A stretch of 64,000 nucleotides of DNA from Caballeronia catudaia (GTDB taxonomy: Bacteria; Pseudomonadota; Gammaproteobacteria; Burkholderiales; Burkholderiaceae): contig NZ_FCOF02000016.1 in assembly GCF_001544755.2 (NCBI RefSeq), forward strand, positions 1 to 64,000, written 5' to 3'. Both the position numbers and the translations under genes were made by a program. Position 1 is the stretch's first letter, and each line of letters begins with the position of its first letter. Below are positions 9,331 through 38,315 of the stretch, in pieces. Below the pieces are notes generated by a model. The model did not search any database. It saw nothing but the letters and a program-made list of their open reading frames with translations, and was not told the DNA's origin.

Positions 9331-9468
9331 ATCGTCTCCTGTCTGTTTATTTGGATGCCTGATGGCGGACGCTTCGAATGAGCCGCTTCAATATAGGCAG
9401 GCGAAATCAGCCAACCTAGTGATGGTTTTCGAATCGCCTCTTCGATATTCCCGAATTCCGCCACGGCC

Positions 9469-9505
9469 TGTCGATTCGAATGATTCGAATCGACAATTCG
9501 AATCA
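9469..9505. promoter_or_regulatory. two overlapping perfect inverted repeats built on TTCGAA
   Basis: TGTCGATTCGAA (9469-9480), a 3-base spacer and TTCGAATCGACA (9484-9495) form a perfect 12-bp inverted repeat. Overlapping it, TGATTCGAAT (9481-9490) and ATTCGAATCA (9496-9505) form a second. The element is non-coding, between the LysR gene and the MFS gene, 139-175 bp upstream of the MFS start. It is a strong operator candidate for the MFS promoter. Confidence 0.6.
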
Positions 9506-9649
9506 TTGCAATTGCTCGACTGAGATTGCGTGTCCAAGGTGGTTGTTCGATGCGATCGCGCACGCGATCAGGAGAGGCGATGACAGTCGGCGTTCACACA
9601 GTGATGCAGCTCGCACGCGCCGCGCAGGGCACGTTCGAAGACTGCGCGC

Positions 9650-10576
9650 TCACTCGCCGGCCGAAGCCGTGAGTTGCGCGATGAGCGCCCTCGTCGCGGG
9701 CGTCAGCGACACGCCGCGCTTCGTGCCGATGCACAGTTGCCGCTTCGCCCACGGTTCGTCCAGCGCCACTATCGTCAGCGCGGCGAGTTCTTCCTTCGGC
9801 AGCATGCTCTCCGGCTGGATCGTGACGCCGAGCCCGGCCTTGACGAGACTGCGCGCCGCTTCGATGGTCGTCACCGTGTACTTCAGGCGCAGGTCGCGGC
9901 CGAGCGCGGCGGCCGCTTGGCGCAACTGGGTCATCATCGACGTGGTCGGCGAGATGCCGATCAGGTCTTCGTCGAGCAGATCGTGCGTGGTCACGCTGGC
10001 GCGCTCGCCGAGCGGATGTTTCCGCGGCACGATCGCGGCGAGGCGGTCCGTACGGTATTCGACGATATCGAGCCCCTCGTGGTGAACGTCGTTCGTCGCA
10101 TAGAACATCGCGAGATCGGCCTTGCCCGACAGCACGGCGCCGACGACGTTGACGTTGGCATCCTCGTGCAGATCGATATCCACGAGCGGAAAGTCGCGCC
10201 TGAAGTCGGCTATCTCTCTCGCCAGAAAATGAACGATGATCGTGCTCGTCGAACTGATGCCGACCTGCCCGCGGACACCTTCGGTGAATTCGGCGATCTC
10301 CCGGCGCATGACATCGAAATTGGCGAACATAAGACGCACGTGACGCGCGAGTACTTCACCCGCCGGGCTGGGCGTCATGCCACCCGGCATGCGCTCGAAC
10401 AGCGCGATGCCCGCGACTTCCTCGAGCTCCTGGATGCGCCGCGTTGCGGCGGGCGGGGTAATGTTCTCGCGCTGAGCGGCGCGCCGCATCTGCTGCTCCT
10501 CGACGACCGAGAGAAACAGGCGCAGCGTGAACAAATCGACGCGTCGGGTCAGTGTGTGGACGCTCAGTCCGGTCAT
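9650..10576 (-). CDS. LysR-family transcriptional regulator
   Basis: The 308-residue protein has the LysR winged-helix domain at residues 14-75 (LFTLRLFLSVVEEQQMRRAA, PPAATRRIQELEEVAG, LFERMPGGMTPSPAGEVL). A periplasmic-binding-protein-like effector domain follows from about residue 100. Such regulators usually activate a linked operon on binding a pathway metabolite. It lies between the CoA transferase gene (73 bp upstream, same strand) and the MFS gene (downstream), so it probably controls their use of an organic acid. Confidence 0.9.
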   Translation of the reverse strand: MTGLSVHTLTRRVDLFTLRLFLSVVEEQQMRRAAQRENITPPAATRRIQELEEVAGIALFERMPGGMTPSPAGEVLARHVRLMFANFDVMRREIAEFTEGVRGQVGISSTSTIIVHFLAREIADFRRDFPLVDIDLHEDANVNVVGAVLSGKADLAMFYATNDVHHEGLDIVEYRTDRLAAIVPRKHPLGERASVTTHDLLDEDLIGISPTTSMMTQLRQAAAALGRDLRLKYTVTTIEAARSLVKAGLGVTIQPESMLPKEELAALTIVALDEPWAKRQLCIGTKRGVSLTPATRALIAQLTASAGE

Positions 10577-25115: not shown

Positions 25116-25928
25116 CTATTCAGAGAAGAGAAAACGAATCGGCAAGATGCCAAGATCACCAAATCCAATGTCCAACGGCCGGCCGAGCGGCAACTCGAGC
25201 ACGCCCCCGTAAGAGCCCGTTATCACTGCTCGACCGGCTTGCAGTCCCAGACCCCGCTCGCGCAGGAAATTGGCTAGCCACACAATGGGCAAGAGGACAT
25301 TGCCATCCGGGTGCCGGCCTTCAAGACGAACCGGAGCTTCACCGGCGGTAGTCAGACTGATGGTGAATTCGGCTGGAAGATGGTCCGGCGTCGCGCCATC
25401 AGGAAACTCCACGCGCGGCCCGATGACAAGCCCGGCGTTGAACAAACCATCCGCCAGCAATTCTGGAAACGTTAGGGACGCCGGTTGCGAGTAACGACTG
25501 CCGAGCAACTCGAGCGCGAGGTGCACGTCACCTAAAGCATCGAGCACCTCGGCTTCGCTGTATGCGTACCTTCGAGGCGGCAAGTCGCGCTTTATAAAAC
25601 AGGCGAGTTCGGGCTCTGCCTTCACGGTAGACTGCGCCGAGCGGGCGCTGATGCTGCACTCAACGCTGCGGTATATCAGATCGGCGTAGATCGGCGCGGC
25701 GATGACCTTACCCGCCGTCGGCAGCGCGCATTTCCAAGCGCCGGTTTCGCGCCCAAGGGCATCACTCACCTTTCGCTGAATTGCGAAGCCCTCGTCAACC
25801 GTTGAAGGCCGCAGTTCGACGGGCAGGCGCTCAACCTGCGTGTTTTGACAACGCGCTGCAACGAGGATGCTTGCTGCCTTTTCATGCCACAAGGCCACTC
25901 GCTGAGAAGCATCAACTGGATTCGGCAT
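25116..25928 (-). CDS. 2-keto-4-pentenoate hydratase-like protein (MhpD/DmpE family)
   Basis: The 270-residue protein matches the hydratase/decarboxylase family of meta-cleavage pathways. Visible motifs are VDEGFAIQRKVSDALG, GAWKCALPTAGKVI, KAEPELACFI with the metal-binding Glu pair, DVHLALELLGSRY and AGRAVITGSYGGVLEL. The enzyme would hydrate a 2-keto-4-enoate to a 4-hydroxy-2-keto acid. The ATG at 25928 lies one base after the IclR stop (TGAGATG), so the two are coupled; longer in-frame starts would extend into the IclR gene. The FAH-like gene follows. Confidence 0.85.
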   Translation of the reverse strand: MPNPVDASQRVALWHEKAASILVAARCQNTQVERLPVELRPSTVDEGFAIQRKVSDALGRETGAWKCALPTAGKVIAAPIYADLIYRSVECSISARSAQSTVKAEPELACFIKRDLPPRRYAYSEAEVLDALGDVHLALELLGSRYSQPASLTFPELLADGLFNAGLVIGPRVEFPDGATPDHLPAEFTISLTTAGEAPVRLEGRHPDGNVLLPIVWLANFLRERGLGLQAGRAVITGSYGGVLELPLGRPLDIGFGDLGILPIRFLFSE

Positions 25929-25929
25929 C

Positions 25930-26736
25930 TCAGGCCGCCGCGTTGACTTGCCCATCGACGCTCTGTCGCGGCCAGACGGCTCCCAACTTCGCGGATGCCT
26001 CGCGCAGTAGCGCGTAAAAGGCGTCGTAGCGCTGCGGCGGTATGCGTAAGACCGGCCCGGCAATGCTCATCGTTCCGACTACCGCCCCATCAGTCAGCGA
26101 GCGCACGGTCACGGCCATCGCGACCACACCGGGCTCCGCCTCCTCGACGACCAGACCATAGCCGCGCTGCCTCGTCAGTTCGAGTTCCGGTATCAATCGG
26201 TCGACGCTATTGATCGCCTTCGATGTCCCCGCGCCGTTTGGCTTGCCGAGTCCTCCACGCAATGCGTGCCCGATGGCTTCGTCGTTTGACATTGCCGCCA
26301 ACCACGCCTTCCCGACTGATGTCGCATGCAATGCGATGGGACTATGCATGGACGGCGAATACATGAGACCGGGCGCCGCGCCCTGGGACGCTGCGAGCCA
26401 CGCGAGTGTCCCTTCATTGATCACCGTCAGCCGAACTAGCTCGTGGCACTGCGCTGCGACTTCGTCGAGGATCGGCTGCACCAAGCCTGGTAGCCCTAGA
26501 CCATGCAGGTACCGCTGACCGAGCAAAGAAAGCTTCAAGGTCAAACGGTACTGGGACGTCTGTTCATCTTGTTCGGCCCAGCCCTGCTCGCACAGTTGTG
26601 CAAGCACTCGATGGGCGGGTCCTTTCTCCAGCTCGAGTTCAGTGGCGATATCGGACATACGCATCCAGCGCGCCTCCCGTGCGAGCAACTCAATCGCCTG
26701 AAGCGAACGGTCAACTGCTCCCTTGACAACTCTCAT
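25930..26736 (-). CDS. IclR-family transcriptional regulator
   Basis: The 268-residue protein has the IclR winged-helix domain (residues 1-65: VVKGAVDRSLQAIELLAREA, MSDIATELELEKGPAHRVLA) and an effector domain (LVRLTVINEGTLAWLAASQG, HATSVGKAWLAAM, LTRQRGYGLVVEEAEPGVVA, VGTMSIAGPVLRI). It diverges from the MHS transporter gene and is coupled to the hydratase gene, so it most likely controls both directions from the 86-bp gap between 26736 and 26823. No good ribosome-binding site precedes its ATG. Confidence 0.92.
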   Translation of the reverse strand: MRVVKGAVDRSLQAIELLAREARWMRMSDIATELELEKGPAHRVLAQLCEQGWAEQDEQTSQYRLTLKLSLLGQRYLHGLGLPGLVQPILDEVAAQCHELVRLTVINEGTLAWLAASQGAAPGLMYSPSMHSPIALHATSVGKAWLAAMSNDEAIGHALRGGLGKPNGAGTSKAINSVDRLIPELELTRQRGYGLVVEEAEPGVVAMAVTVRSLTDGAVVGTMSIAGPVLRIPPQRYDAFYALLREASAKLGAVWPRQSVDGQVNAAA

Positions 26737-26743
26737 AATGTCG

Positions 26744-26773
26744 GTAACATGATTCTTACTGGAACGGTGTTAC
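26744..26773. promoter_or_regulatory. GTAACA-N18-TGTTAC inverted repeat in the iclR/MHS divergent gap
   Basis: GTAACA (26744-26749) and TGTTAC (26768-26773) flank 18 bases in the short region between the divergent iclR and transporter starts. Its position suits an IclR-type operator repressing both promoters. Confidence 0.45.
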
Positions 26774-26822
26774 AACAATAAAGAATGAGCGCCGAAAAGT
26801 CAATCCAAGACGGAGACAAGTC

Positions 26823-28256
26823 ATGAATGGAAGCACCTCGGTTGAGTCCCATCGCCAGCGCCAGTCGAAGATAGCTGCGGCCAGCGGCTGGATCGGCTCA
26901 GCACTTGAGTACTACGACTTCTTCATTTACGCGACCGCAGCGTCATTGCTTTTTCCGCAGCTCTTCTTCCCCTCTGGTAACCCTACGGTTGCCATCATCG
27001 CATCACTGGCGACCTTCGGCGTCGGCTATGTCGCCCGACCGATAGGCGCGATGGTGCTCGGCCACGTCGGCGACCGGCACGGTCGGAAGACAGTGCTCAT
27101 TTTCTGCATGTTTTTAATGGGTGTCTCCACGATGGGCGTGGGACTGTTGCCGACGTATCACCAGGTCGGCATCTGGGCTCCGTTGCTGCTCGTCGTCCTC
27201 CGACTCATTCAGGGCTTTGCCGTTGCGGGAGAGGTCTCCGGCGCCAGTTCCATGATTCTTGAGCATGCACCGTTCGGCCGGCGTGGCTACTTCGCGAGCT
27301 TTACCCTGCAAGGGGTGCAAGCCGGGCAACTCCTGGCGGCAGCGGTCTTCTTGCCGTTGGCGCATTTCTTACCGAAAGATCAGTTCGCTTCCTGGGGATG
27401 GCGCATTCCGTTCCTCCTCAGCTTTGTCGTCATCATCATGGGGTACATCATTCGCCGCCAGGTTGACGAAACTCCCGCTTTTCGCGAGGAGCAGGCTCAC
27501 GGCGAGGTGCCTTCCTCACCGGTTGTCGAGGTTCTCGGACAAAGTTGGGACGATGTCTTGCGCGTCGTGTGCATGGCGCTCGTTGCGGTCATCGCGCTTC
27601 TTGCTACGGTGTTCGGCGCCGCGTATGCAGTCCAGCCGGCATACGGTATCGGCTTTCCCGTTGGCGTCTTTCTTTGGATTCCCGTTCTTGGAAACATCTG
27701 CTCGGTCATACTGATTCCCTTCGTCGGTAATCTGTCTGACAAGATCGGCCGCAGGCCGCCAGTTCTTGCCGGCGTGCTCAGCGCCGGGCTGCTCTCGTTC
27801 GGCTATCTGTACGCCATCAGCATCCATAACCTCTGGCTCACGATAATTCTTTCGGTGCTGATGTGGGGCATCGCTTACCAAGGCTTCAACGGGGTGTTTC
27901 CGAGCCTTTTCCCAGAACTATTCCGCACGCGCGTGCGCGTGACGGGGATGGCCATCGGACAAAACGTTGGGACAACGCTTGCGGCACTGACGCCCACACT
28001 CTTTGTCGCCGTCGCGCCCCCCGGCACCGCCAACATTCCGCTGAAGATTGGCTTTCTAACGTTCGGCATCTGTCTCGTCGCCGCGTTCGCTGCATTCACT
28101 ACGCGTGAGACGTATCGGATCCGCCTTGACGATCTTGGCGACCGCGATGCGGTGCCCGTACCCAAAGCCGAGTACGAGCGCATGCGCGGCGAAGCGATGG
28201 CCGGACGAATCGATCCAGTCGATGCGCGGGACCTCGCAAATCAGGCGCGCTCGTAA
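26823..28256 (+). CDS. MFS transporter, metabolite:H+ symporter (MHS) family
   Basis: The 477-residue, 12-helix protein has ALEYYDFFIYATAASLLFPQ, the typical first helix of MHS carriers (shikimate, alpha-ketoglutarate, proline/betaine). It also has GHVGDRHGRKTVLIFCMFLM, RLIQGFAVAGEVSGASSM and GWRIPFLLSF. A hydrophilic C-terminal tail follows. It would import an organic acid or polyol-like solute with protons. GGAGA precedes the ATG. It is the first gene of a plus-strand operon continuing through cupin, shikimate-dehydrogenase-like, Gfo and MetX-like genes. The presence of a shikimate-dehydrogenase-like enzyme makes a hydroxylated carboxylic acid the best guess. Confidence 0.88.
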   Translation: MNGSTSVESHRQRQSKIAAASGWIGSALEYYDFFIYATAASLLFPQLFFPSGNPTVAIIASLATFGVGYVARPIGAMVLGHVGDRHGRKTVLIFCMFLMGVSTMGVGLLPTYHQVGIWAPLLLVVLRLIQGFAVAGEVSGASSMILEHAPFGRRGYFASFTLQGVQAGQLLAAAVFLPLAHFLPKDQFASWGWRIPFLLSFVVIIMGYIIRRQVDETPAFREEQAHGEVPSSPVVEVLGQSWDDVLRVVCMALVAVIALLATVFGAAYAVQPAYGIGFPVGVFLWIPVLGNICSVILIPFVGNLSDKIGRRPPVLAGVLSAGLLSFGYLYAISIHNLWLTIILSVLMWGIAYQGFNGVFPSLFPELFRTRVRVTGMAIGQNVGTTLAALTPTLFVAVAPPGTANIPLKIGFLTFGICLVAAFAAFTTRETYRIRLDDLGDRDAVPVPKAEYERMRGEAMAGRIDPVDARDLANQARS

Positions 28257-28376
28257 CTGTTTGGGCCGGCTCCGCTGGTTGCTACCAATGTGTCGGTGGA
28301 ACTTGGCTTGAGCAGGAGATAAACGATTTGACCGCGGCGCTTGCGAATAGATTGACGCCGCACAAAGGAAATGGAC

Positions 28377-28829
28377 ATGCACAACGAAGACACCCCCCGT
28401 TACGACGGCCCGCGCGAGCTTGCGCAATCTCTAAGCGCGTTTGCGCGAATCAGTGCGGCCGAAGCGCCCTGGAATCAGGAGGGCCTGCGCGCCGATTCTG
28501 AGTACCGCGACCTCGGACTCGCCACGGTAACCAACGGTCGCATCGGGGCAAAGCACATTCGTGCGCTCAAGCCGTTCACCGATCCTACTGGCTGGCACTG
28601 GCACGACATGACCGGGCACTACCTGTATGTGCTGCGCGGATCCGTGACCTTCCGTTTCGCCGGAGTTGAGGGCGACGTGAGGCTAAACGCTGGTGACGGC
28701 CTGTCGCAGCCCGCCGGTGTGCCGCATAACGTGATGTGGCGCTCCGACGATCTCGAAGTCATCGAGATCAACGAGCCCGCTGTCTACGGGACTTGGGATC
28801 TGGACGTACCGCCGGCACCCTGGAAATGA
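28377..28829 (+). CDS. cupin-domain protein
   Basis: The 150-residue single-domain cupin has metal-ligand motifs in TGWHWHDMTGHYLYVLRGSV (HxH, then the following His/Tyr) and QPAGVPHNVMWR (last His). The start was set at the second ATG because AGGA lies seven bases upstream; the ATG at 28371 overlaps that site. Cupins of this size in catabolic clusters can be isomerases, dioxygenases or lyases. The function is unknown beyond probable metal binding. Confidence 0.8.
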   Translation: MHNEDTPRYDGPRELAQSLSAFARISAAEAPWNQEGLRADSEYRDLGLATVTNGRIGAKHIRALKPFTDPTGWHWHDMTGHYLYVLRGSVTFRFAGVEGDVRLNAGDGLSQPAGVPHNVMWRSDDLEVIEINEPAVYGTWDLDVPPAPWK

Positions 28830-28895
28830 CCGATCACCTTTCCGAGCAGTCAAGGTAGGACTGCGCCATCATCCAACATCGAACACCACGCAGCA

Positions 28896-29732
28896 ATGGA
28901 TCCATATATCACTGGAAAAACGCGACTCTATGGGTTAGTGGGCGATCCACTGACGGCAGCTAAGTCGCCACAATTGTTGAACCAGCTCTTTGCTGAACAG
29001 CGCGTGGACGCAGCGTGCGTGCCGTTCTGGGTGAAGGCGGAAAACCTGTCCGCCTTTGTCACCGGTGCACGAGCGATGGGCAATCTCTCCGGCATGCTCG
29101 TCACCATGCCTCATAAGCAACGGATGCTGGAATTTGTCGACGAACTACATCCGACTGCTCGTCAGGTCGGCGCGCTCAACGTCATCCGTTGCGAGGCAGA
29201 TGGACGCTGGGTCGGCGCGATATTCGATGGCGTCGGTTGCGTTCTCGGGATGCAGTGGGAAGGCAACCATCCGGCGAATAAGTCGGTGCTTCTCGTCGGC
29301 GCCGGAGGCGCAGGGAGCGCCATCGCATTTGCTGTCGCGTCCGCAGGCGCTAGCAAGCTCACCATATCCGATGCCAACGAGCTTCGGGCTGGCGACCTTG
29401 CCACATCTGTTGCTGCTGAGACCAGCTGCGACGCACGTTCGGGGCCGCCCGACCCGCGAGGCTTCGACGTCGTCATCAATGCCACGCCGCTCGGCATGAA
29501 AGTCGACGATGCCATGCCGATCGATCCTGAGCGGCTCGCGCCTGGCGCCATCGTCGTCGACATCATCAATGCGTCCGAGCCGACGCCGCTTCGACGTGCC
29601 GCGCAAGCGCGCGGGTGTCGTACCCAGGACGGGGGACCGATGCATCAAGGGCAGGCTGTCTACGCACTAAAGTTCTTAGGATTCGATTACCTCCCCGATG
29701 GACGATCAGCGCAGGACCACGGCCCGCGATGA
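28896..29732 (+). CDS. shikimate/quinate dehydrogenase-like protein
   Basis: The 278-residue protein has the AroE fold: an N-terminal substrate domain with the catalytic Lys in MPHKQRM (K74) and Asp in FDGVG (D111), then a Rossmann domain with LLVGAGGAGSAI. The C-terminal GQAVYALKFL is the conserved Gln region. The substrate-side SxS motif of true AroE is changed to AAKSP, and TDG to FDG, so the substrate is probably not plain shikimate. It would oxidise a cyclic or shikimate-like hydroxy acid imported by the upstream MHS carrier. Its place in a catabolic operon argues against a biosynthetic aroE. Confidence 0.82.
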   Translation: MDPYITGKTRLYGLVGDPLTAAKSPQLLNQLFAEQRVDAACVPFWVKAENLSAFVTGARAMGNLSGMLVTMPHKQRMLEFVDELHPTARQVGALNVIRCEADGRWVGAIFDGVGCVLGMQWEGNHPANKSVLLVGAGGAGSAIAFAVASAGASKLTISDANELRAGDLATSVAAETSCDARSGPPDPRGFDVVINATPLGMKVDDAMPIDPERLAPGAIVVDIINASEPTPLRRAAQARGCRTQDGGPMHQGQAVYALKFLGFDYLPDGRSAQDHGPR

Positions 29733-29758
29733 CCTGGTAATTTCAAAGGAGAATATGC

Positions 29759-30778
29759 ATGAGAGTTGCTTTGCTGGAGGTCAGCCATTGGCATGTCCCG
29801 CTCTATCTGGATGCGCTGGAAGCGCCTGGAATTGAGGTGGTTGCCGTGTCGGATGCGGAGCATGTCGAGGGCGAGGCAATCGCCGCACGATTCGGAAGCA
29901 AGCTGTACTCGTCGGCCTATGAATTGCTCGAGCGCGAGGAAGTCGATTTCGCATTCGTGTTCGGGCGGCATTCCGAGATGCCGGCGCTCGCCGAGGCGGT
30001 GATCGCCCGCAACATTCCCTTTGCACTGGAAAAACCGTGCGGCGTCAACATGTCACAGGTCACCCGGCTTCGCAAACTGACAGAAGAAGCCAACCTTTAT
30101 TGCGCAGTGCCATTGATCTTCCGAATGAGCGAGTTGCTCAGTTCGCTAGAAGATGCCGAAGGGCGCATACCGTCGGACTTCAACTACATGTCCTTCCGTT
30201 TCATTGTGGGTCCGCCGAGTCGGTACGAAGCGGCCGGCGCCGGCTGGGCGCTCGATCCCGTGTACTCCGGAGGAGGATCGACAATCAACGTGGCGACTCA
30301 CTTCATCGACCTGTTCAGATTGCTCACTGGCAAAGAGATCGCCCGAGTCTCTGCCACAATGAATTCAAGAACGCATCGAGGGGCCGTTGAGGACTATTCG
30401 CTGCTGACCATGCAAACCGACGACGGCGTGATCGGCCTGGTGGAAACGGGATATAGCTTCCCCAGCACCCCCGACGAGCAGCGCGAATTCTCGTTCACTC
30501 TTGCATCCGATCGTATATACGCGAAGTCCGCCCCCGACCGAATCGAGATTCGTGAAAGGAACAACCTTTCTGCCGGCACGCGAAGCCGCCGCCTCCAGCT
30601 CGAGACCGACATTTACTACCCGTTGTTCGTGAAGCAAGTGCTCACGGAATGCCGTACTGGCGCAAAGCCAATCGCGTCATTGCGTGACGCGGAGCTCATG
30701 ATGCAAGTCATGGACGCGGCCTACGCATCAGCTCGCCAAGGGGGTGCGCTTCAAACTCTTGAGCCGATGACCAAGTGA
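29759..30778 (+). CDS. Gfo/Idh/MocA-family oxidoreductase
   Basis: The 339-residue protein has the two-domain layout of the family: an N-terminal Rossmann-like part (MRVALLEVSHWHVPLYLDAL, IEVVAVSDAEHVEGEA) and the ALEKPCGV segment, which is the EKP motif with its catalytic Lys. A C-terminal beta-sheet domain follows, with GGGSTINVATHFIDLFRLL. The usual GxGxxG at the first strand is replaced by EVSHWHV, so cofactor binding may differ. AGGAG precedes the ATG seven bases upstream. It probably oxidises a sugar-like or cyclitol-like hydroxyl. Its stop overlaps the next start (GTGA). Confidence 0.85.
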   Translation: MRVALLEVSHWHVPLYLDALEAPGIEVVAVSDAEHVEGEAIAARFGSKLYSSAYELLEREEVDFAFVFGRHSEMPALAEAVIARNIPFALEKPCGVNMSQVTRLRKLTEEANLYCAVPLIFRMSELLSSLEDAEGRIPSDFNYMSFRFIVGPPSRYEAAGAGWALDPVYSGGGSTINVATHFIDLFRLLTGKEIARVSATMNSRTHRGAVEDYSLLTMQTDDGVIGLVETGYSFPSTPDEQREFSFTLASDRIYAKSAPDRIEIRERNNLSAGTRSRRLQLETDIYYPLFVKQVLTECRTGAKPIASLRDAELMMQVMDAAYASARQGGALQTLEPMTK

Positions 30779-31830
30779 CGTATCTGTCAGACCGCACGCT
30801 GATGCTGCAAACAAGACATTGCAATGCGGCCGCCTATCCTGCACCACAGGAAGCGGACTGGGTCGCGCGAGATTTCCGTTTCAGCACCGGCGAAGTGATG
30901 TCGGAGGTGCGGCTGCACTACCGAACCATCGGCGACCCGTCCGGTGAGCCTGTTTTGGTCTTGCACGGCACGACGGGCACGGGCGCCAGCATGCTGATAC
31001 CTGATTTCGCTGACGAGTTATTCGGCCCCGGGCAACCGCTAGATGCCAACAAGTATTTCATCATCCTTCCGGACGCGCTAGGAGCCGGTGGATCGTCCAA
31101 GCCGTCCGACGGACTGCGCACGCGATTCCCGGCTTATAACTATGACGACATGGTGCTCGCGCAGCACCGGCTTCTCACTGAGCACCTGAACATCCGGCAC
31201 CTGCGCCTGTTGATCGGCAACTCGATGGGCGGCATGCACGCATGGATCTGGGGGGTGCGCTATCCGGATTTCATGGACGCGCTCGTGCCAATGGCGTCGC
31301 AACCGACTGAGATGTCCGGCCGCAACTGGATGCTGCGCCGCATGCTCATTGAGATGGTCCGAAACGATCCAGAGTACCGGGGCGGCGATTACACCAGCCA
31401 ACCCAGATCGCTGCGCCTTTCCAACGTCTTTTTTGCGCTGGCTACCAACGGTGGCACCCTCGCCTGCCAAAAGGCGGCGCCGACGATCGAACTGGCCGAC
31501 AAGTACGTCGACGACAAGTTGGCGCAGCCGTTCACATTGGATGCCAACGACTTCATATACCAGTGGAGCGCCTCACGCGGTTATAACCCTGCACCCGGTT
31601 TGCGGAACGTGAAGGCTGCGGTCCTCGCCATCAATGCCGCCGACGATGAGCGCTATCCGCCGGAGACCGGCTTGATGGAGCGCGCGATGCAGCTTGTGCG
31701 CAACGGCCGGCTGCTTCTGATCCCTGCCAGCGAGGATACGTGCGGCCACGGGACGAACGCACTGGCTCGCTTCTACAAGCGCGAGCTGCATGAACTGCTG
31801 CGAACGGCCCCACGCAGGGTCGGGGAGTAA
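30775..31830 (+). CDS. MetX/homoserine acetyltransferase-like alpha/beta hydrolase
   Basis: The 351-residue protein has the MetX-type fold. It contains RLHYRTIGDPSGEPVLVLHG, YFIILPDALGAGGSSKPSDG, the nucleophile elbow GNSMGGMHAWIWG with Ser, and a late His in EDTCGHGTN. The family includes acyltransferases and hydrolases; the context suggests hydrolysis or acyl transfer on a pathway intermediate, not methionine synthesis. The GTG start overlaps the previous stop by four bases, so the genes are coupled. It is the last gene of the operon. Confidence 0.82.
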   Translation: MTYLSDRTLMLQTRHCNAAAYPAPQEADWVARDFRFSTGEVMSEVRLHYRTIGDPSGEPVLVLHGTTGTGASMLIPDFADELFGPGQPLDANKYFIILPDALGAGGSSKPSDGLRTRFPAYNYDDMVLAQHRLLTEHLNIRHLRLLIGNSMGGMHAWIWGVRYPDFMDALVPMASQPTEMSGRNWMLRRMLIEMVRNDPEYRGGDYTSQPRSLRLSNVFFALATNGGTLACQKAAPTIELADKYVDDKLAQPFTLDANDFIYQWSASRGYNPAPGLRNVKAAVLAINAADDERYPPETGLMERAMQLVRNGRLLLIPASEDTCGHGTNALARFYKRELHELLRTAPRRVGE

Positions 31831-32292
31831 CGCCTCTACGGGCGTACCGCTAACGTCCTCCGATTCGAGCCGTCGCTTCGCTGTCGCCTTGAACGTCCGC
31901 TGCGTTAAGGACACGGTCGCACTGGGCTGCCCGCCGTTACGGCATTGATAACGTTTGAACATCAATGCTTCCGAAAATCGCACTTCTCGTTTGAGCCGTC
32001 CTGAGCAAATATTCATGCTCAAGACGTTCATAAACGCACGACCAAGAACGCATCGGCGACAGGCGCGAACCGCTGAACCGCGTTTCGCCGCATCCCACGG
32101 CGAGCCCGATCACGGGCGCCGCCACCGGTCGCCGACGCGCGTCTCGCATGATCCACCTCGCTACTTGAAACCTGCCGCCGCTTTCGAGCGTGTCCACGGC
32201 AGCGGTGCATCTCGCGTCTGCAGCAGCGAGCGGAATGAATACCGGATACCTGCTTCATTCGTCATTGCCATGAAATTTAGGAGACACTTCAC
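31831..32292. other. intergenic stretch with palindromic operator, upstream of the citrate-lyase-like genes
   Basis: About 460 bp without a convincing gene. It holds the perfect palindrome at 31942-31968 and GGAG just before the ATG at 32293. Nothing else was recognised. Confidence 0.5.
31942..31968. promoter_or_regulatory. operator-like palindrome GCATTGAT-N11-ATCAATGC
   Basis: The arms GCATTGAT (31942-31949) and ATCAATGC (31961-31968) are perfect inverted repeats around 11 bases. A close copy, CGATTGAT-N11-ATCAATCG, is at 36372-36398 before the symporter gene. The pair implies one regulator for the citrate-lyase-like genes and the symporter. T-N11-A spacing is typical of LysR-type sites, but no regulator gene is adjacent. 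Confidence 0.65.
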
Positions 32293-33591
32293 ATGCAAAT
32301 CACCGGAATGTTGCACGGCGCGCGCCTGTTGCAATTCGTTGGCTTTCCGTCCAGCGAAGTGCTGGGTCCAGGCGCCAGCGAAGAAGAGATCAAGTCGCTC
32401 ATTGACCGACACGGTCAGATATTCATCAAGCCGGTGTTCAAGGGCGGCGTGGGCAAGAAAGGCAAAGCCGGCCTGCTCGGCCGCGCGACGGACCTCAAGA
32501 CCGCGCTCGCGGAAAAAGAGCGCTTGTTCTTTGCCGAGCACGTGGTAGGTCATGTCAGGGCCAAGGCGAACGGCGTGACATTCGAAGCGGGTGTGCCCGC
32601 CAAGCACGAAGTCTACTTTTCCATCACCGATTCCACGCGCTTTCGCGCGCCGACGATGACACTGTCGCACATGGGCGGCATGGATATCGAGGAGGTCGAC
32701 CCGAAGCACGTCGCAATGGTGCCATTCGATGCGCTGACGGGATTGAAGGCGTTCGTCGTCGCCAATGCGCTGAGCGAAATCGGCGCCCCGCGTGAAATCA
32801 TCTCGCCACTCGTGCAGCAGTTGCCGAAGCTCTGGGAGCTATTCCACGACTTCGGCATGACGACGCTCGAACTCAACCCGATCCGCATGCGCGAGGACAA
32901 AAAGGGACGCCTCACGCCCGTAGCGTGCGACTTCAAGTGCGGATTCGACCGCGACGATCCGCGCTTCTCGCGGCTCGGTCTCCCGGCCCATCTGTTCGCC
33001 GCCGACTACTCGGACTTCGAGCAGGAGATCAATCAGCTGCGCACGCACCAAGGCCAAAGCGATGTCTATGTTATCAACGACAAGGGAACCATCCTTGCGC
33101 CCACCTTCGGCGGCGGCGCGAACTCACTCGTCACGGAAATGCTCGGCGATGCGGCCATCATCTCGTCGGACTTTGGCGGCAATCCTCCATACGAAAAGAT
33201 GAAGGAAGTGGCGCGCATCTGCTTCAGACACTGGCTGAAGCAATCGAACGTGCTGTTCATCATCGGCGGTAAGTCGAACAACACCGACATCTACGAAACA
33301 CTGCGCGCGATGGCCGATGCGCTGCGCGAGCACTTCAGCGAGCACGGACCGACACCGCTCTATGTCGTGCTCGGGCGCGGCGGCCCGAACCTCGTGCGAG
33401 GTATGTCTGCACTGCGCGACACCTGCGATGCGCTCGGCCTGCCCTATCGCTTGTTCGGCTTCGACTCCGACATCAGCGAAGTGATCCAGTACGCGCGCCG
33501 CGCCGATACATGGATGCAATCGGGTGGACGCGCGCAAGTCGCGGCGCGCATCGGCGCGCGCGAAGCTCATTCGCAGACGGCATCGGCTTGA
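32293..33591 (+). CDS. ATP-citrate-lyase-like ATP-grasp/citrate-binding subunit
   Basis: The 432-residue protein aligns, from memory, with the N-terminal part of ATP-citrate lyase. Matching segments are QIFIKPVFKGGVGKKGKAGL (ATP-grasp), SHMGGMDIEEVDPKH, TTLELNPIRM (Mg ligands), LAPTFGGGANSLVTEMLGDA, then the citrate-binding domain with IIGGKSNNTDIYE and VLGRGGPNLVRGM. At the citrate-contacting positions of human ACLY (N346, F347, T348, R379) it has N329, N330, T331 and R362: three of four kept, Phe changed to Asn. It should activate a tri- or dicarboxylate with ATP and CoA together with the next gene's product. GGAG precedes the ATG. Plain succinyl-CoA synthetase beta is less likely because of the citrate-binding domain. 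Confidence 0.8.
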   Translation: MQITGMLHGARLLQFVGFPSSEVLGPGASEEEIKSLIDRHGQIFIKPVFKGGVGKKGKAGLLGRATDLKTALAEKERLFFAEHVVGHVRAKANGVTFEAGVPAKHEVYFSITDSTRFRAPTMTLSHMGGMDIEEVDPKHVAMVPFDALTGLKAFVVANALSEIGAPREIISPLVQQLPKLWELFHDFGMTTLELNPIRMREDKKGRLTPVACDFKCGFDRDDPRFSRLGLPAHLFAADYSDFEQEINQLRTHQGQSDVYVINDKGTILAPTFGGGANSLVTEMLGDAAIISSDFGGNPPYEKMKEVARICFRHWLKQSNVLFIIGGKSNNTDIYETLRAMADALREHFSEHGPTPLYVVLGRGGPNLVRGMSALRDTCDALGLPYRLFGFDSDISEVIQYARRADTWMQSGGRAQVAARIGAREAHSQTASA

Positions 33592-33602
33592 GGAGATCGA
33601 AC

Positions 33603-36302
33603 ATGCACAAGCAAGGCAACAGTCATTTCAAATACTTCGTCGGGATTCAGTCGCTGGCAGATATCGCCACGCGCGAAGATCGCGTCTGCGTGCTCAACAT
33701 TCTCGGCGGTGAGTCGTCGGACGTGACGCCGGTGAGTCACGCTTTCTCGGGCGGGAACGTCGTGTTCGGCACCGCGCCCGGCAAAGGCGGGCAAGTGCTG
33801 GCCACGGCCGCGGGCGACATCCCGGTCTTCAACAACGTGCGAGAGGGTCTGGAAGCCGGCCACCGGTTCAACTGCGGCGTCGTGTACTTGCCGCCTTCCG
33901 CCGCGCGCGACGGCGTGGCCGAGCTGATCCGCGTGAATCCGGATCTGCGCAAGATCTTCATCATCACGGAGAAGATCGCCGTGCACGATGCGCGGGAGAT
34001 CCGCGCGATGGGTCAGCAGGCCGGCATCGACATCTTCGGTGCCAACGGGCTGGGCGTCGCCGACTCCTGGCAGCGCGTGCGCATCGGCGGTGCGCTCGGC
34101 GGTGACGATCCCGGCGCGACGCTGCGCCAGGGATCGATCGCCATCTTCTCGAACTCCGGCGGCTTCAGCACCACGATCGCGCAATATCTGCGCATGAGCG
34201 GCTGGGGTACGTCGACAGTCATTTCGAGTGGCAAGGATGTCTATATCCACTATGCCGCACCGGAATTCGCCTTCGCGCTTGCCAACGACGCGCGCAGCAA
34301 GGCCGCCGTGCTCTACTGCGAGCCCGGCGGATATTACGAGGCAGACGCGGAATTCACCAAGCCCGTGGTCGCGTGCGTGGTTGGCCGCTGGAAAAGCCGT
34401 CTCACGCGCGCAGTGGGACATGCGGGCGCGATGGCGGGCGGCTCCGACGATGCGCTCGCGAAGGAACGCTGGTTCAAGGAGAAATTCGGCGTCGAACGGC
34501 TCTTCACGCCAGACGATCCGTGCTGCTCGGCGAAGGGCGCCGTCGTGACGAACATCGCCCATATTCCTGCCGCGCTCACGGCTGTAATGCGCGCAAACGC
34601 AACAATGCCTGATTTCGAGCCCGAAGGCAGCCTCGCGCTCAAGCCGTGGTTCGGCTCGGATCAGAGGCTCGATCTGCCCGCCGAGCTCGCGCTTGCAGTC
34701 GTGAAAGCGGTAGCACCGTACGACGAGCAAGTTGCGCGGGTGAATGACCAGATCGGCGCGATCCCGCCGCGGCAGCCGTTGAAAGACGCGTCGGGCGCCT
34801 CGCAGATGGATGCGAAGACACAGGTCAGCAGCCTGCACGGCGTATCGATGCTCGAAGCGGCGACGCACTCCTTCGAAGCCAACGTGTGCCTCGCACTATT
34901 GCACGAGTTCGGCGGCGCAAACGACGAGAAACTGATCGACGTCGCGGTCGGCGCGGCGGTGAACCTGTACGGCACGCCTGAACTGGCAGCGGCGCAAGCG
35001 GCGCGTGAAGCGGGCAATGCGCCCAACGCGGTGCTCGCCGCCGCCGCTGCGATCGTGGGGCCGAATCGCCAGCGTGCGGCACGCGAGGCGGCCAGGCTGA
35101 TGATCGACCGGTTCGCCGCAGCAAAACTCGTGGACGCGTTCGATCCGGATTTCGGCATCGACGCGATCGACACCGAAGGCAGCGCGGCGCTCTTCTCCGA
35201 CGAACCCGACCCGAAGGCGCAAGCCATGCTCGCGGGGCTGGCCGCACGCGGCGTGAGTTCGGCATTCCTTCGATGGCTTGCGAGCGGCCCGGGCCATCCG
35301 CGCGCGGACGCCGTGCTCGCGGCGATCACGACGACACTGGCCTGGGGCCCGCTCATGCGCAAGCGGATCTCGCGTCTGACGGCGCAGAGCCTGCCCTGGT
35401 GGATGACGCTGTTCGGCACGCTGATCGGCGCCTCGGCGGACGCGTCGCGCCACCATCCCGACAGCTTCTGCGATTTTTCCACCGAGGCATTGCTTGGCGA
35501 ACGCTCGCTGACAGAGATCGCATTTGCGGCGCTGCTCGGCCTGAAACCGTCGAGCGACGACCTGTTCGCCTTCAGCACGCTGACCGGGCTGCTGCTCACG
35601 AACGGACCCGGCGCGATCTCGGCGCAGGGCGCGAAGGGCGCGGTATCCGCCGATGGCCCCGAAGGTCCGGAGCGCGTGCAGTTGAACAAGGCGCTGATTG
35701 GATTTCTCACCCACTCGGGTTACACGCACGGCGGCAATGGATATGAAGGTATCGCGTTTCTCAACGACGCGTTTCGTGACAGCGGCCTCAGCGATCCAAC
35801 CGACCCGCATCACGGCGTCGATCTCGAAGCGCTCGCGCAGCGTTCCGTTGAACGCTACGCGCAATACAAGGCGCGGCAGAAGCAGATGGGCAGCCTCGAC
35901 ATCGCGAAGCTGCCGGGCGTGAATCACCCGGTGTTCAAGGACAAGCCTGTGAATCACGATCCGCGCGAGGTGTATATTGCGGGGCTGTATGAGGCGCGCG
36001 ACGAGTACAACGCGTTTCATGCCTACTATCGGGCGTTGGTGCAGGCATTGTTCGACGCGGGCGTGTCGCGTACCGTCTACTGCGTCAATGTCGATGCCGT
36101 GATCGCCGCGCTGCTGTTGAAGATGCTGTGGCAGCCGCTCCAACGCGGGGAATTCAGCGAGGCCGACCTCGAAAACGCGGCTTTCACGATCTTTCTGTAT
36201 CCGCGCATGCTCGGGTGCGCCGCCGAAATTGACGATCATCTCAACCGCGGCCGCAACATGGACACGCGCACGCCCGCTTCACAATGTCGTTTCGTGGCCT
36301 GA
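33603..36302 (+). CDS. ATP-citrate-lyase-like CoA-ligase/citryl-CoA-lyase-like subunit
   Basis: The 899-residue protein begins with a CoA-binding and ligase region like succinyl-CoA synthetase alpha (FIITEKIAVHDAREIRAMGQ, IAIFSNSGGFSTTIAQYLRM). The phosphohistidine motif GHAGAMAGG has H273. A linker leads to a C-terminal citrate-synthase-like domain (about residues 575-899). Compared with human ACLY from memory, the lyase residues are partly kept: the GHR His matches H775 (GVNHPVF) and the NVDG Asp matches D831 (NVDAVIA), but the His of ADHGP is Asn667 (LTNGPGAIS). The ligase half thus looks active while the lyase half may be altered in substrate or activity. The start has GAGGAG overlapping the previous stop, so the two genes are coupled. 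Confidence 0.78.
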   Translation: MHKQGNSHFKYFVGIQSLADIATREDRVCVLNILGGESSDVTPVSHAFSGGNVVFGTAPGKGGQVLATAAGDIPVFNNVREGLEAGHRFNCGVVYLPPSAARDGVAELIRVNPDLRKIFIITEKIAVHDAREIRAMGQQAGIDIFGANGLGVADSWQRVRIGGALGGDDPGATLRQGSIAIFSNSGGFSTTIAQYLRMSGWGTSTVISSGKDVYIHYAAPEFAFALANDARSKAAVLYCEPGGYYEADAEFTKPVVACVVGRWKSRLTRAVGHAGAMAGGSDDALAKERWFKEKFGVERLFTPDDPCCSAKGAVVTNIAHIPAALTAVMRANATMPDFEPEGSLALKPWFGSDQRLDLPAELALAVVKAVAPYDEQVARVNDQIGAIPPRQPLKDASGASQMDAKTQVSSLHGVSMLEAATHSFEANVCLALLHEFGGANDEKLIDVAVGAAVNLYGTPELAAAQAAREAGNAPNAVLAAAAAIVGPNRQRAAREAARLMIDRFAAAKLVDAFDPDFGIDAIDTEGSAALFSDEPDPKAQAMLAGLAARGVSSAFLRWLASGPGHPRADAVLAAITTTLAWGPLMRKRISRLTAQSLPWWMTLFGTLIGASADASRHHPDSFCDFSTEALLGERSLTEIAFAALLGLKPSSDDLFAFSTLTGLLLTNGPGAISAQGAKGAVSADGPEGPERVQLNKALIGFLTHSGYTHGGNGYEGIAFLNDAFRDSGLSDPTDPHHGVDLEALAQRSVERYAQYKARQKQMGSLDIAKLPGVNHPVFKDKPVNHDPREVYIAGLYEARDEYNAFHAYYRALVQALFDAGVSRTVYCVNVDAVIAALLLKMLWQPLQRGEFSEADLENAAFTIFLYPRMLGCAAEIDDHLNRGRNMDTRTPASQCRFVA

Positions 36303-36371
36303 CCGCCAGAGCTTAAAGGCTCCGCCGGGCACTCGTGCATAAGCAGCGCCCTGCGGAGCCGACGGCAGTGT

Positions 36372-36398
36372 CGATTGATAATCAGGAAACATCAATCG
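36372..36398. promoter_or_regulatory. operator-like palindrome CGATTGAT-N11-ATCAATCG
   Basis: Perfect 8-bp arms (36372-36379 and 36391-36398) around 11 bases, about 100 bp before the symporter start. The inner ATTGATAA and ACATCAAT are identical to the site at 31942-31968. It is the second copy of the shared operator. Confidence 0.65.
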
Positions 36399-36497
36399 TT
36401 GAGAACATTGCACTTATCGTTTTATTGGTCCAAGGCCAGTATTGCCGAAAGACAAAAGCGGACCCACCGCATGTTTCGGGATTTCAGGAGACAGTTG

Positions 36498-37802
36498 ATG
36501 CACCCCTCGCCCTCTACACTTTCGCCGGGACAATCAAAGGCTGCTGCGGTTTTCCGCGTAACGGCCGGAAATTTTCTGGAGCAGTTCGACTTTTTTCTGT
36601 TCGGCTTCTACGCGACGCAAATCGCCGGCGTCTTCTTTCCGGCATCGAGCGAGTTTGCTTCGCTGATGATGACATTCGCGGTCTTCGGCGCCGGCTTCTT
36701 GATGCGCCCGCTGGGCGCGATCGTGCTTGGCGCCTACATCGACGACGTCGGCCGTCGCAAAGGCCTCATCGTCACGCTTTCCATCATGGCGAGCGGCACG
36801 ATCCTGATCGCGTTCGTACCAGGGTACGCGACGATCGGTCTTCTGGCGCCTGCGCTCGTACTGGTAGGTCGGCTGCTGCAGGGATTCTCGGCGGGCGCTG
36901 AGTTGGGTGGCGTGTCGGTTTATCTCGCCGAGATGGCCACGCCCGGCCGCAAGGGCTTCTTCACGAGTTGGCAGTCCGCGAGCCAGCAGGTGGCGATTGT
37001 CGTGGCTGCGGCTCTCGGCTTCGCGTTGAACCAGTCGCTGAACGCCGCGGCTATAGCGGCATGGGGATGGCGAGTCCCCTTCTTCGTCGGCTGCATGATC
37101 GTGCCGTTCATCTTCATGCTGCGTCGCAACCTCGAGGAGACGCAGGAGTTCAAGGCGCGCGCGCGTCAGCATCGGCCGAGCATGAACGAAGTGTTCCGCA
37201 CGCTGATTAAGAACTGGGGCGTTGTGATCGCGGGCATGATGCTGGTGGCAATGACCACCTCCAGCTTCTATCTCATCACGGTCTATGCGCCGACTTTCGG
37301 CAAGACGGTCCTGCACCTGAGCACCGCGGATAGTTTGCTCGTGACCCTGTGCGTTGCTGTATCGAACTTCGTGTGGCTCCCAATTGGTGGCGCGCTCTCA
37401 GACAAGATCGGCCGCAGGCCGCTCCTGGTCGGCATGACACTGCTCGCCATCGCGACGGCATACCCCGCGCTGTCGGTGCTCGCTCACGCGCCGAGCTTCC
37501 TCAACATGCTGCTTGTCCTGCTTTGGCTCTCGTTCATGTACGGCATTTATAACGGCGCAATGGTGGTCGCGCTCACGGAAGTCATGCCGGTTCAGGTACG
37601 CGTCGCGGGCTTCTCGCTCGCCTATAGTCTTGCCACGGCGGTGTTCGGCGGCTTCACGCCAGCAATCTCGACGGCGCTCATTCATATGACTGGTGACAAG
37701 GCCGCACCGGGCTACTGGATGAGTTTCGCCGCAGTGTGTGCGCTTTTGGCGACGTTCGCACTCTATCGCCGGCGCGCAGCCGCGCTGACTCCGGTGCATT
37801 AA
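36498..37802 (+). CDS. citrate/tricarballylate-type proton symporter (MHS family MFS)
   Basis: The 434-residue, 12-helix carrier resembles CitA/TcuC tricarboxylate:H+ symporters. Visible segments are [20 protein letters not shown] in helix 1, [60 protein letters not shown] and [20 protein letters not shown]. The ATG at 36498 is set by AGGAG seven bases upstream and by the family start. It would import citrate or a similar tricarboxylate, which fits the ATP-citrate-lyase-like genes upstream and the shared palindrome. Confidence 0.85.
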
Positions 37803-37850
37803 ATCTCGTTGCCCAAGCGTCTATCACCCGCAATCCGACACGACTCAGGC

Positions 37851-37967
37851 CATGAGAAATTTGCTTCTGAACCGAAGGAAGCGAAGGCGCTGCTCGACTA
37901 TCTCGCTTCGCCCGATGTACAAGCCGAAGTGAGATCGACCGGGCTCGATTCCGTATCGGCGCATTAA
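37851..37967 (+). pseudogene. ABC substrate-binding protein (ModA-like), C-terminal remnant
   Basis: The plus strand encodes EPKEAKALLDYLASPDVQAE and RSTGLDSV up to TAA at 37965. This is the C-terminal helix pair of ModA-like extracellular solute-binding proteins. Nothing of the rest of the protein precedes it, so it is a relic left after the symporter gene. Confidence 0.6.
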
Positions 37968-38033
37968 GACGGAAGCCATGAGAAGGCGTGTCTCAGCCAG
38001 CCTTCCCGTCACACCGGTGTGTCTGTCGCGGGG

Positions 38034-38315
38034 TCATTTGCAACGTCCGGGCGGCCTAGCTCGGCCGCCGTGAGCATGTGTGCGGGACGCGCACGATCGC
38101 ACGCGCCCTCCCACGTCGAAACGAAGAGCACTGCGCAGGCGTTGCTGATCACGCTCGTCAGCGCGCGCGCCTCGGACGTGCAAGACGGACGGGTGCACCG
38201 GCGCCAACAGCATTCTCACGCGAACTTCATCTGGCCCGGGCGTGGGCTCGGGCGAATCCCGCCAGTGGACTACCTCCGACGGCTCGCCGTTGCGCTCAAT
38301 GATCAGGGCCTTCAT
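38034..38315 (-). pseudogene. MDR-family quinone oxidoreductase, N-terminal fragment
   Basis: With GGAG before the ATG, the first 43 residues (MKALIIERNGEPSEVVHWRD, PEPTPGPDEVRVRMLLAPVH, PS) are a good medium-chain dehydrogenase N-terminus. After HPS the family reads DLHxVRG, but here VLHVRGARADERDQQ follows and resemblance ends. No Rossmann domain remains. It is the stub of a gene cut by deletion, downstream of the tautomerase gene on the same strand. Confidence 0.65.

What the first reader, a model, noticed from the sequence alone, without database searches (positions are those of the whole stretch)
32293..37802. Two-subunit ATP-citrate-lyase-like enzyme with an altered lyase site, beside a tricarboxylate symporter
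Seen: a 432-aa ATP-grasp/citrate-binding protein and an 899-aa CoA-ligase plus citrate-synthase-like protein, translationally coupled, followed by a CitA/TcuC-like symporter. Established: ATP-citrate lyase is known mainly from eukaryotes and reverse-TCA bacteria; aerobic Burkholderia-type heterotrophs use citrate synthase. Aligned from memory to human ACLY, citrate contacts N, T and R are kept (N329, T331, R362) but F347 is N330. The phosphohistidine is kept (H273). In the lyase domain the ADHGP His is Asn667, while the second His (H775) and the Asp (D831) are kept. Inference: the pair may activate and cleave a different tri- or dicarboxylate (tricarballylate, methylcitrate, citramalate or similar), or act as a ligase only. 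That would be an undescribed route for using imported acids.
Basis: partly seen in the sequence, partly recalled or inferred. Interest (0 to 1): 0.8.

Follow-up and report, generated by a model that had tools for sequence, protein, structure and literature searches.

The report
Citrate-splitting enzyme wired to acid importer
A soil-type bacterium carries a little-studied two-part enzyme, so far described in microbes that build their bodies from carbon dioxide, next to and apparently switched on together with a pump for citrate-like acids, so it probably splits imported citrate for food rather than fixing carbon.

Summary
But the pair is not an orphan: it belongs to "type II ATP citrate lyase", a family proposed for CO2-fixing magnetotactic cocci and tubeworm symbionts. 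The probable Magnetococcus marinus MC-1 pair is 69% and 57% identical, and published type II primers encode two signature peptides of this family. The "altered" lyase residue (Asn667) is invariant in 83 aligned rows, including reverse-TCA organisms. Citrate-site Asn330 is also the residue of citryl-CoA synthetase. These are family traits, not evidence for another acid.

The setting looks new. The window falls in a large clade outside the CO2-fixing group; 18 of 18 Burkholderiaceae holders lack a reverse-TCA-type oxidoreductase over cut-off. The pair often sits beside tricarboxylate importers, though not in every locus. A palindromic LysR-type box, ATTGAT-N11-ATCAAT, precedes the pair and tcuC in six holder genomes, and otherwise only a second tcuC in the window's genome. 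Best reading: a LysR-controlled, catabolic, ATP-dependent citrate cleavage unit. Substrate, direction and regulator are inferred; no structure model could be run.

The parts
31944..31966 (.). palindrome ATTGAT-N11-ATCAAT (LysR-type T-N11-A box), 349 nt before the small subunit
   Evidence: 2 exact matches in window, 0 in 100 shuffles; within 600 nt upstream of the small subunit in 26 of 76 related loci
32293..33591 (+). small subunit (ACLA-like/CcsA-like): ATP-grasp plus citrate-binding domain, 432 aa
   Evidence: 69% identical to the probable MC-1 small subunit
33277..33285 (+). citrate-site residues N329 N330 T331
   Evidence: alignment with CcsA and human ACLY; invariant in 97 of 97 rows
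33603..36302 (+). large subunit, 899 aa: CoA-ligase part + middle part + citryl-CoA-lyase-like domain
   Evidence: 57% identical to the probable MC-1 large subunit
34419..34421 (+). H273, phospho-histidine of the GHAGA motif
   Evidence: invariant 83/83; motif seen in succinyl-CoA synthetase alignments
34740..35282 (+). middle region (residues about 380-560), perhaps a degenerate second citrate-synthase-like copy
   Evidence: weak profile match to the citryl-CoA lyase family (probability 64%)
35280..36299 (+). citryl-CoA-lyase-like domain (residues 560-899)
   Evidence: hhalign probability 96.9% to citryl-CoA lyase relatives; NCBIfam citryl-CoA lyase model 28.1 bits, far under its cut-off of 212
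35601..35603 (+). N667, in place of the ADHG His
   Evidence: register; 83/83
35727..35729 (+). H709 of HGGNG, aligned with the HGG His of citryl-CoA lyase; the Chlorobium-type ACL subunit has F there
   Evidence: 83/83
35925..35927 (+). H775, the GHP His
   Evidence: 83/83
36093..36095 (+). D831, the catalytic-type Asp
   Evidence: 83/83
36374..36396 (.). second ATTGAT-N11-ATCAAT box, 124 nt before tcuC
36498..37802 (+). TcuC tricarballylate/citrate-type proton symporter (ORF can be opened at 36375)
   Evidence: NF011656, 752.7 bits, cut-off 445
37809..37964 (+). C-terminal remnant of the SBP_bac_11 protein that follows tcuC in relatives
   Evidence: 65% identity, residues 209-260 of 260
38015..38176 (-). 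C-terminal remnant of the DctA gene that faces tcuC in relatives
   Evidence: 63% identity, residues 381-434

Best explanation
The pair is a heterotroph-clade type II ATP citrate lyase. The small subunit takes ATP and citrate, phosphate passes through H273 of the large subunit to citrate, CoA displaces it to give citryl-CoA, and the large subunit (lyase domain with H709, H775, D831 and arginines, and N667 where other enzymes have His) helps split it to acetyl-CoA and oxaloacetate. A LysR-type regulator, probably the one that accompanies TcuC in relatives and in a second module of this genome, binds ATTGAT-N11-ATCAAT and turns on the pair and the symporter together when citrate or a related tricarboxylate is present. 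Shown here: family membership, conserved residues, gene order, shared box. Inferred: reaction, direction, regulator, inducer.
For: Family: 39 of 398 Pseudomonadota genomes (the window's own among them) match the lyase domain, all at E 3.4e-150 or lower with nothing weaker up to 0.001. The full pair is 69%/57% identical in G328, a genome with 11 magnetochrome matches and one 4,719,581-base contig, most likely MC-1 (size recalled), where two putative type II ACL genes and citrate cleavage are reported (PMC6783814, passages). Published type II primers (PMC3522073) encode VAKEEWF and NGFEAIA; G328 has AKEEWF and NGFEAIA, the window AKERWF and NGYEGIA, at the same alignment columns. Reaction: E123, H273, N667, H709, H775, R788, D831 and R868 are 83/83; citrate residues 97/97. 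Role: TcuC in 33, DctA in 21, TctA in 10, TctC in 7 and TcuA plus TcuB in 6 of 80 loci, each 0 of 20 in the MC-1-side loci. Box: 54 sites in 80 loci: 26 before the pair, 17 before tcuC, 3 before LysR genes, 8 within about 80 nt after the large subunit. Six holder genomes have 3,2,2,2,2,2 exact sites, each before the pair or a tcuC; six non-holders have 1,1,0,0,0,0.
Against: I saw no report of a purified type II ACL. N667 is a real departure from citrate synthase, citryl-CoA lyase and conventional ACL. 36 of 80 loci show none of TcuC, TctA, TctC or DctA in the sequence fetched, some on short contigs; the Aminobacter pUSP3 locus lists no tricarboxylate importer among its 29 features. TcuB is not enriched in holder genomes (4 of 13 against 5 of 20). 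The own genome also has a normal citrate synthase, so the pair could run the other way. The box is confined to the Paraburkholderia/Caballeronia part of the tree, apart from one-mismatch sites in two Microvirga loci, and one of the two non-holder sites (G009) precedes a LysR-family gene only 29% identical to the module's. The identification of G328 as MC-1 is an inference.
Confidence: 0.7

Rival explanations
1. The pair activates and splits a different tri- or dicarboxylate (tricarballylate-derived, aconitate-derived, methylcitrate, citramalate).
For: N667 and N330 differ from human or conventional ACL. Neighbours include TcuA with TcuB in 6 of 80 loci and a 4-oxalomesaconate-tautomerase/PrpF-type isomerase in 4 of 80, both handling citrate relatives.
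Against: Both residues are shared with citrate-handling relatives: N330 with CcsA, N667 with the probable MC-1 protein and other genomes carrying a reverse-TCA-type oxidoreductase. TcuB occurs in 4 of 13 holder and 5 of 20 non-holder genomes of the genus, so tricarballylate oxidation is neither required nor enriched. TcuA and PrpF-type products lead to cis-aconitate and so to citrate (TcuA recalled; PrpF-type aconitate isomerase: PMC11495376, passages).
Confidence: 0.15
2. The pair runs in the synthetic direction, making citrate and ATP from acetyl-CoA and oxaloacetate.
For: [quoted passage not shown]
Against: A normal citrate synthase is present and the gene is often beside importers of tri- or dicarboxylates.
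Confidence: 0.08
3. Ligase only: the lyase domain is structural or allosteric and citryl-CoA is cleaved elsewhere or not at all.
For: N667 replaces a usual active-site His. For human ACLY an allosteric role of this domain has been argued (PMC10115795, passages).
Against: H709, H775, R788, D831 and R868 are invariant in 83 of 83 rows. In the human model the ligase part itself cleaves, and E123, which I take as the counterpart of human E599 (mapping partly recalled), is invariant.
Confidence: 0.07

Closest known systems
Type II ATP citrate lyase (Magnetococcus marinus MC-1 Mmc1_3638/3639; Riftia/Tevnia and Lamellibrachia symbionts)
   Same: Two adjacent genes of similar length, 69% and 57% identity to the probable MC-1 pair, same signature peptides (with substitutions) and same lyase residues including N667 and H709.
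   Different: There in genomes with KorA-type genes (16 of 16 tested on that side); here in Burkholderiaceae without one over cut-off (0 of 18), often beside importers and with a LysR-type box. On the other side of a fully supported branch.
Citryl-CoA synthetase CcsAB plus citryl-CoA lyase Ccl (Hydrogenobacter)
   Same: Closest solved structures by sequence for both ligase parts (6hxq); same NNT citrate motif; lyase domain aligns with Ccl relatives.
   Different: Ligase and lyase are fused with about 200 extra residues between them; ADHG His is Asn.
Conventional (type I) ATP citrate lyase (AclAB, human ACLY)
   Same: Same overall chemistry expected; ATP-grasp, citrate-binding and CoA-ligase parts.
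   Different: Large subunit 899 against 617 residues (6hxj_B); N667 for the ADHG His; H709 where the Chlorobium-type subunit has F; no PF00285 match.
Salmonella tcuRABC tricarballylate operon
   Same: TcuC symporter; in L047, L048, L068 and L123 a LysR gene, tcuA, tcuB and tcuC precede the pair.
   Different: No citrate-cleaving pair in the Salmonella operon (recalled).
trans-Aconitate tar operon (Bacillus velezensis, PMC11495376)
   Same: Regulator, PrpF-type isomerase and MFS importer as one inducible unit.
   Different: No ATP citrate lyase pair in the genes described; seen through abstract and passages only.

Membership tests
Type II ATP citrate lyase | Homologous, adjacent small and large subunit genes as in MC-1 | tested here: met
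   MC-1 identity of G328 inferred
Type II ATP citrate lyase | Peptides encoded by the published type II primers (VAKEEWF, NGFEAIA) | tested here: met
   met at peptide level with substitutions (AKERWF, NGYEGIA); the primers themselves have 6 or more mismatches to the window gene and 4-5 to G328
Type II ATP citrate lyase | Reverse-TCA genome context (KorA-type oxidoreductase) | tested here: not met
   0 of 18 Burkholderiaceae holders over the TIGR03710 cut-off (16 have weak matches under it), 16 of 16 tested genomes on the MC-1 side over it; a trait of the hosts, not of the protein
Type II ATP citrate lyase | ATP- and CoA-dependent citrate cleavage | not testable with these tools
   needs enzyme assay
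Conventional (type I) ATP citrate lyase | ADHG(P) His in the citrate-synthase-like domain | tested here: not met
   N667 in 83 of 83 rows
Conventional (type I) ATP citrate lyase | Citrate-site N, T, R | tested here: met
   N329, T331, R362, 97 of 97
Citryl-CoA synthetase + separate citryl-CoA lyase | Lyase as a separate gene | tested here: not met
   lyase domain is residues 560-899 of the large subunit
Citrate synthase (PF00285) | Match over the Pfam cut-off | tested here: not met
   no PF00285 match in the large subunit and none at this locus in the genome search; one distant relative, in G344, gives a weak match under cut-off
TcuC tricarballylate/citrate symporter | NCBIfam NF011656 over cut-off | tested here: met
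   752.7 against 445 bits; the model is a subfamily, substrate not tested

The most novel reading that the evidence does not exclude
A catabolic branch of type II ATP citrate lyase, widespread in heterotrophs and in part of them under dedicated LysR control with its own importer, uses an Asn-for-His lyase site with new chemistry or a new substrate (a citrate relative from plant roots), opening an ATP-paid shortcut from imported tricarboxylates to acetyl-CoA plus a C4 acid that bypasses both TCA decarboxylations.
Probability: 0.3. Interest if true: 0.7.

Novelty: new variant of a known kind. Interest (0 to 1): 0.55.

Why it matters
ATP citrate lyase genes are treated as a marker of reverse-TCA autotrophy (PMC9560492 says so in a passage). 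A large clade of type II genes outside the autotrophs, in the window's relatives co-regulated with a tricarboxylate symporter, means that finding such genes does not by itself show CO2 fixation. It also offers culturable hosts in which the type II enzyme, with its Asn-for-His lyase site and extra middle region, can be assayed and deleted, which bears on the open argument over whether the lyase domain of ATP citrate lyase is catalytic or allosteric (PMC10115795, passages).

Tried and rejected
Different-substrate reading: lowered, because both 'altered' residues are shared with citrate-handling relatives.

Tricarballylate as the obligate substrate: the gene order tcuR-A-B-C-pair suggested it, but TcuB is over cut-off in 4 of 13 holder genomes against 5 of 20 non-holders. 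I searched 33 of the 41 same-genus genomes and left out eight, mostly small ones; G108 and G124, which keep only fragments of the gene, were counted as non-holders.

A profile search of the lyase domain against PDB sequences found nothing useful; the register was obtained instead through citryl-CoA lyase relatives. The middle region as a second lyase copy: only weak support (64% to citryl-CoA lyase relatives, 35% to the lyase domain).

Structure prediction was asked for 12 times and the machine was always full, so no fold search was run.

In-print checks: searches of an open-access library; I saw the listings, passages of PMC2864759, PMC10115795, PMC9560492, PMC3522073, PMC6315080, PMC6783814, PMC6593406, PMC5459899 and PMC11495376, and one whole section of PMC5459899. 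Nothing there described a catabolic type II ACL in heterotrophs; searches returned listings without a relevant paper. Hugler and Sievert 2011 is not held and was not seen.
Full report
OBSERVATION. The window carries a 432-aa ORF at 32293-33591 and an 899-aa protein at 33603-36302, both on the + strand, followed by a symporter ORF ending at 37802. They look like real genes: Pfam finds ATP-grasp_2 and Citrate_bind in the first and CoA_binding plus Succ_CoA_lig in the second, and NCBIfam names the third TcuC, 752.7 bits against a cut-off of 445. The closest solved structures by sequence of the two enzyme parts are citryl-CoA synthetase subunits, 6hxq. The two genes are 11 nt apart. In 77 of 80 related loci both subunits passed my length cut, and the gap was 1-71 nt in 76 of these 77.

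RESIDUES. Counting along the printed alignment with human ACLY, N329, N330, T331 and R362 stand for N346, F347, T348 and R379. The same call shows that CcsA also has N-N-T, so N330 is not evidence of a new substrate. The lyase domain has no sequence match of use in the PDB. A profile-profile comparison with citryl-CoA lyase relatives taken from related genomes (only one of them over NCBI's cut-off) gives 96.9% probability and puts N667 on the ADHG His, H709 on the HGG His, H775 on the GHP His, D831 on the Asp of N-I-D, R788 on DPR and R868 on the later Arg. A PDB search with one of those proteins shows that solved citryl-CoA lyase (6hxp) has HGG while an ATP-citrate lyase alpha subunit (6hxn) has FGG at that place. 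So the large subunit lost one His and has another that this conventional ACL lacks.

FAMILY. A search of 398 Pseudomonadota genomes with the lyase domain found 39 with a match (the window's own included), the weakest at 3.4e-150, and nothing between that and 0.001. Twenty stretches were fetched, called here the MC-1 side: 20 of 20 have the large subunit (one cut by a contig end) and 19 the small one, at 54-58% and 63-69% identity to the window. Three genomes of one family (two of them among the twenty) were tested for magnetochrome domains and have 9-11 matches each, against none in 14 control genomes; the others were not tested for this. One of the three, G328, is a single contig of 4,719,581 bases, the size I recall for Magnetococcus marinus MC-1. 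PMC6783814 (passages) says that MC-1 has citrate cleavage activity, no conventional ACL or citryl-CoA enzymes, and two genes, Mmc1_3638 and 3639, for a postulated type II ACL. PMC3522073 (passages) prints primers for the type II large subunit; they encode VAKEEWF and NGFEAIA. G328 has AKEEWF and NGFEAIA at the columns where the window has AKERWF and NGYEGIA. At the DNA level the primers have 4-5 mismatches to G328 and 6 or more to the window gene, so the link is at the peptide level. The key residues (E123, H273, N667, H709, H775, R788, D831, R868) are the same in 83 of 83 rows, 79 of them distinct. I therefore file the pair as type II ATP citrate lyase. PMC5459899 (section 17 read) describes planctomycete enzymes as intermediate between citryl-CoA synthetase plus lyase and type II ACL, which fits.

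TWO SIDES. A quick maximum-likelihood tree of 79 large subunits separates the 20 MC-1-side rows from 59 others, including the window, on a branch with support 100; the root is by midpoint only. TIGR03710 (KorA-type) is over cut-off in 16 of 16 MC-1-side genomes tested and in 0 of 18 Burkholderiaceae with the pair, of which 16 have weak matches under the cut-off. Full-length large subunits were found in 18 of 299 sampled Burkholderiaceae and 13 of 41 of the window's genus. The named relatives include Paraburkholderia, Caballeronia, Variovorax, Microvirga, Methylobacterium and Thauera (454 relatives among a capped list of candidates, the best 80 kept). Nineteen plasmid records hold at least 80% of the protein, so it can travel on plasmids.

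NEIGHBOURS. In the 80 loci I find TcuC in 33, DctA in 21, TctA in 10, TctC in 7, TcuA with TcuB in 6, malic enzyme in 7, a PrpF-type isomerase in 4 and an acyl-CoA thioesterase in 6; 44 have at least one of TcuC, TctA, TctC or DctA and 36 have none, some of them on short contigs. None of these was found in the 20 MC-1-side loci at the same thresholds. TcuC directly follows the pair on the same strand in 29 loci. Names were checked on examples: TcuA 783 bits (cut-off 369), TcuB 708 (524), DctA 548 (513) in NCBIfam; TctA and TctC in Pfam. Two unrelated kinds of tricarboxylate importer beside the same pair in different genera argue for a tricarboxylate substrate. Plasmid annotations agree in part: TctA/TctB-type carrier and two-component system in Microvirga, TcuA/TcuB, 4-oxalomesaconate tautomerase and tripartite carrier in Gemmobacter, MFS and DctA in Paraburkholderia and Caballeronia; but Aminobacter pUSP3 shows no such importer and Polymorphobacter only a 2-hydroxycarboxylate transporter about 6 kb away. 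Against a special link to tricarballylate: TcuB is in 4 of 13 holders and 5 of 20 non-holders.

OPERATOR. Reading the two intergenic stretches showed the same palindrome, ATTGAT-N11-ATCAAT, at 31944 and 36374. These are the only exact matches in the window, against none in 100 shuffles, and a scan allowing two mismatches found no others. Of 76 loci with enough upstream sequence, 26 have it 319-383 nt before the small subunit (25 exact, one with a mismatch), all from Paraburkholderia, Caballeronia or Burkholderia-named records. Across 1,544,178 bases of the 80 loci there are 54 sites with at most one mismatch, in 30 loci: 26 before the pair, 17 before tcuC, 3 before LysR genes, and 8 that the script left unassigned and that lie within about 80 nt after the large subunit; tcuC follows in four of those eight, two run off the contig and two (L052, L068) have no tcuC there. 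The MC-1-side loci have none in 349,202 bases. Genome-wide, six holders have 3, 2, 2, 2, 2 and 2 exact sites; in the five other than the window's genome the ten sites precede the small subunit or tcuC. Six non-holders have 1, 1, 0, 0, 0, 0; the backwards control pattern has none. The third site in the window's genome and the single site in non-holder G238 both precede a TcuC gene in a tcuC - binding protein - dctA - LysR module. The single site in non-holder G009 lies just before a LysR-family gene only 29% identical to the module's. The LysR gene of the module (89% identical to the one beside the pair in relatives) is the likely regulator; this is inference.

MECHANISM. Citrate enters through TcuC. 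ATP, H273 and CoA give citryl-CoA, and cleavage gives acetyl-CoA and oxaloacetate. Whether cleavage is done in the lyase domain or in the ligase part is disputed even for human ACLY (PMC10115795, passages), so N667 does not by itself argue against cleavage. Malic enzyme and pyruvate dehydrogenase genes beside the pair in some loci (L118) fit growth on citrate or C4 acids. None of the chemistry was tested. Structure prediction could not be run.

VERDICT. A widespread, functionally constrained enzyme; family already named but, as far as I saw, poorly characterised; its catabolic, co-regulated setting was not described in the open-access papers that my searches turned up.

Noticed in passing
window 37809-37964 (+) and 38015-38176 (-): C-terminal remnants of the SBP_bac_11 and DctA genes that follow tcuC in relatives: the window's copy of the module seems to have lost most of both, and the LysR gene, by deletion.
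   Followed up: partly
L210 (G000:C76:151000-163000): A second tcuC module (tcuC 90% identical, binding protein, dctA, LysR) in the same genome, with the third and last exact copy of the box before its tcuC.
   Followed up: yes
L193 (G000:C122), about 8389-9743: A broken second pair in the same genome: an interrupted small subunit and only the first 25 residues of the large one were found.
   Followed up: partly
L194 (G000:C106): tcuA and tcuB of this genome lie here without a tcuC match in the 16 kb fetched.
   Followed up: partly
window 34740-35282: About 200 residues between ligase and lyase parts, with a weak match to citryl-CoA lyase relatives: perhaps a dead second lyase copy.
   Followed up: partly
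L118 3633-21514: Pair followed by malic enzyme and pyruvate dehydrogenase E1, E2 and E3 genes, with TctA/TctC upstream: looks like a citrate-use cluster.
   Followed up: no
L095 3669 and L106 3918: One-mismatch relatives of the box between a LysR gene and a PrpF-type isomerase gene in Microvirga, with the pair about 5 kb further on.
   Followed up: no
window 25116-31830: Catabolic-looking genes upstream (IclR regulator, MFS, cupin-like, shikimate-dehydrogenase-like, MetX-like hydrolase). Whether they recur beside the pair elsewhere was not tested.
   Followed up: no
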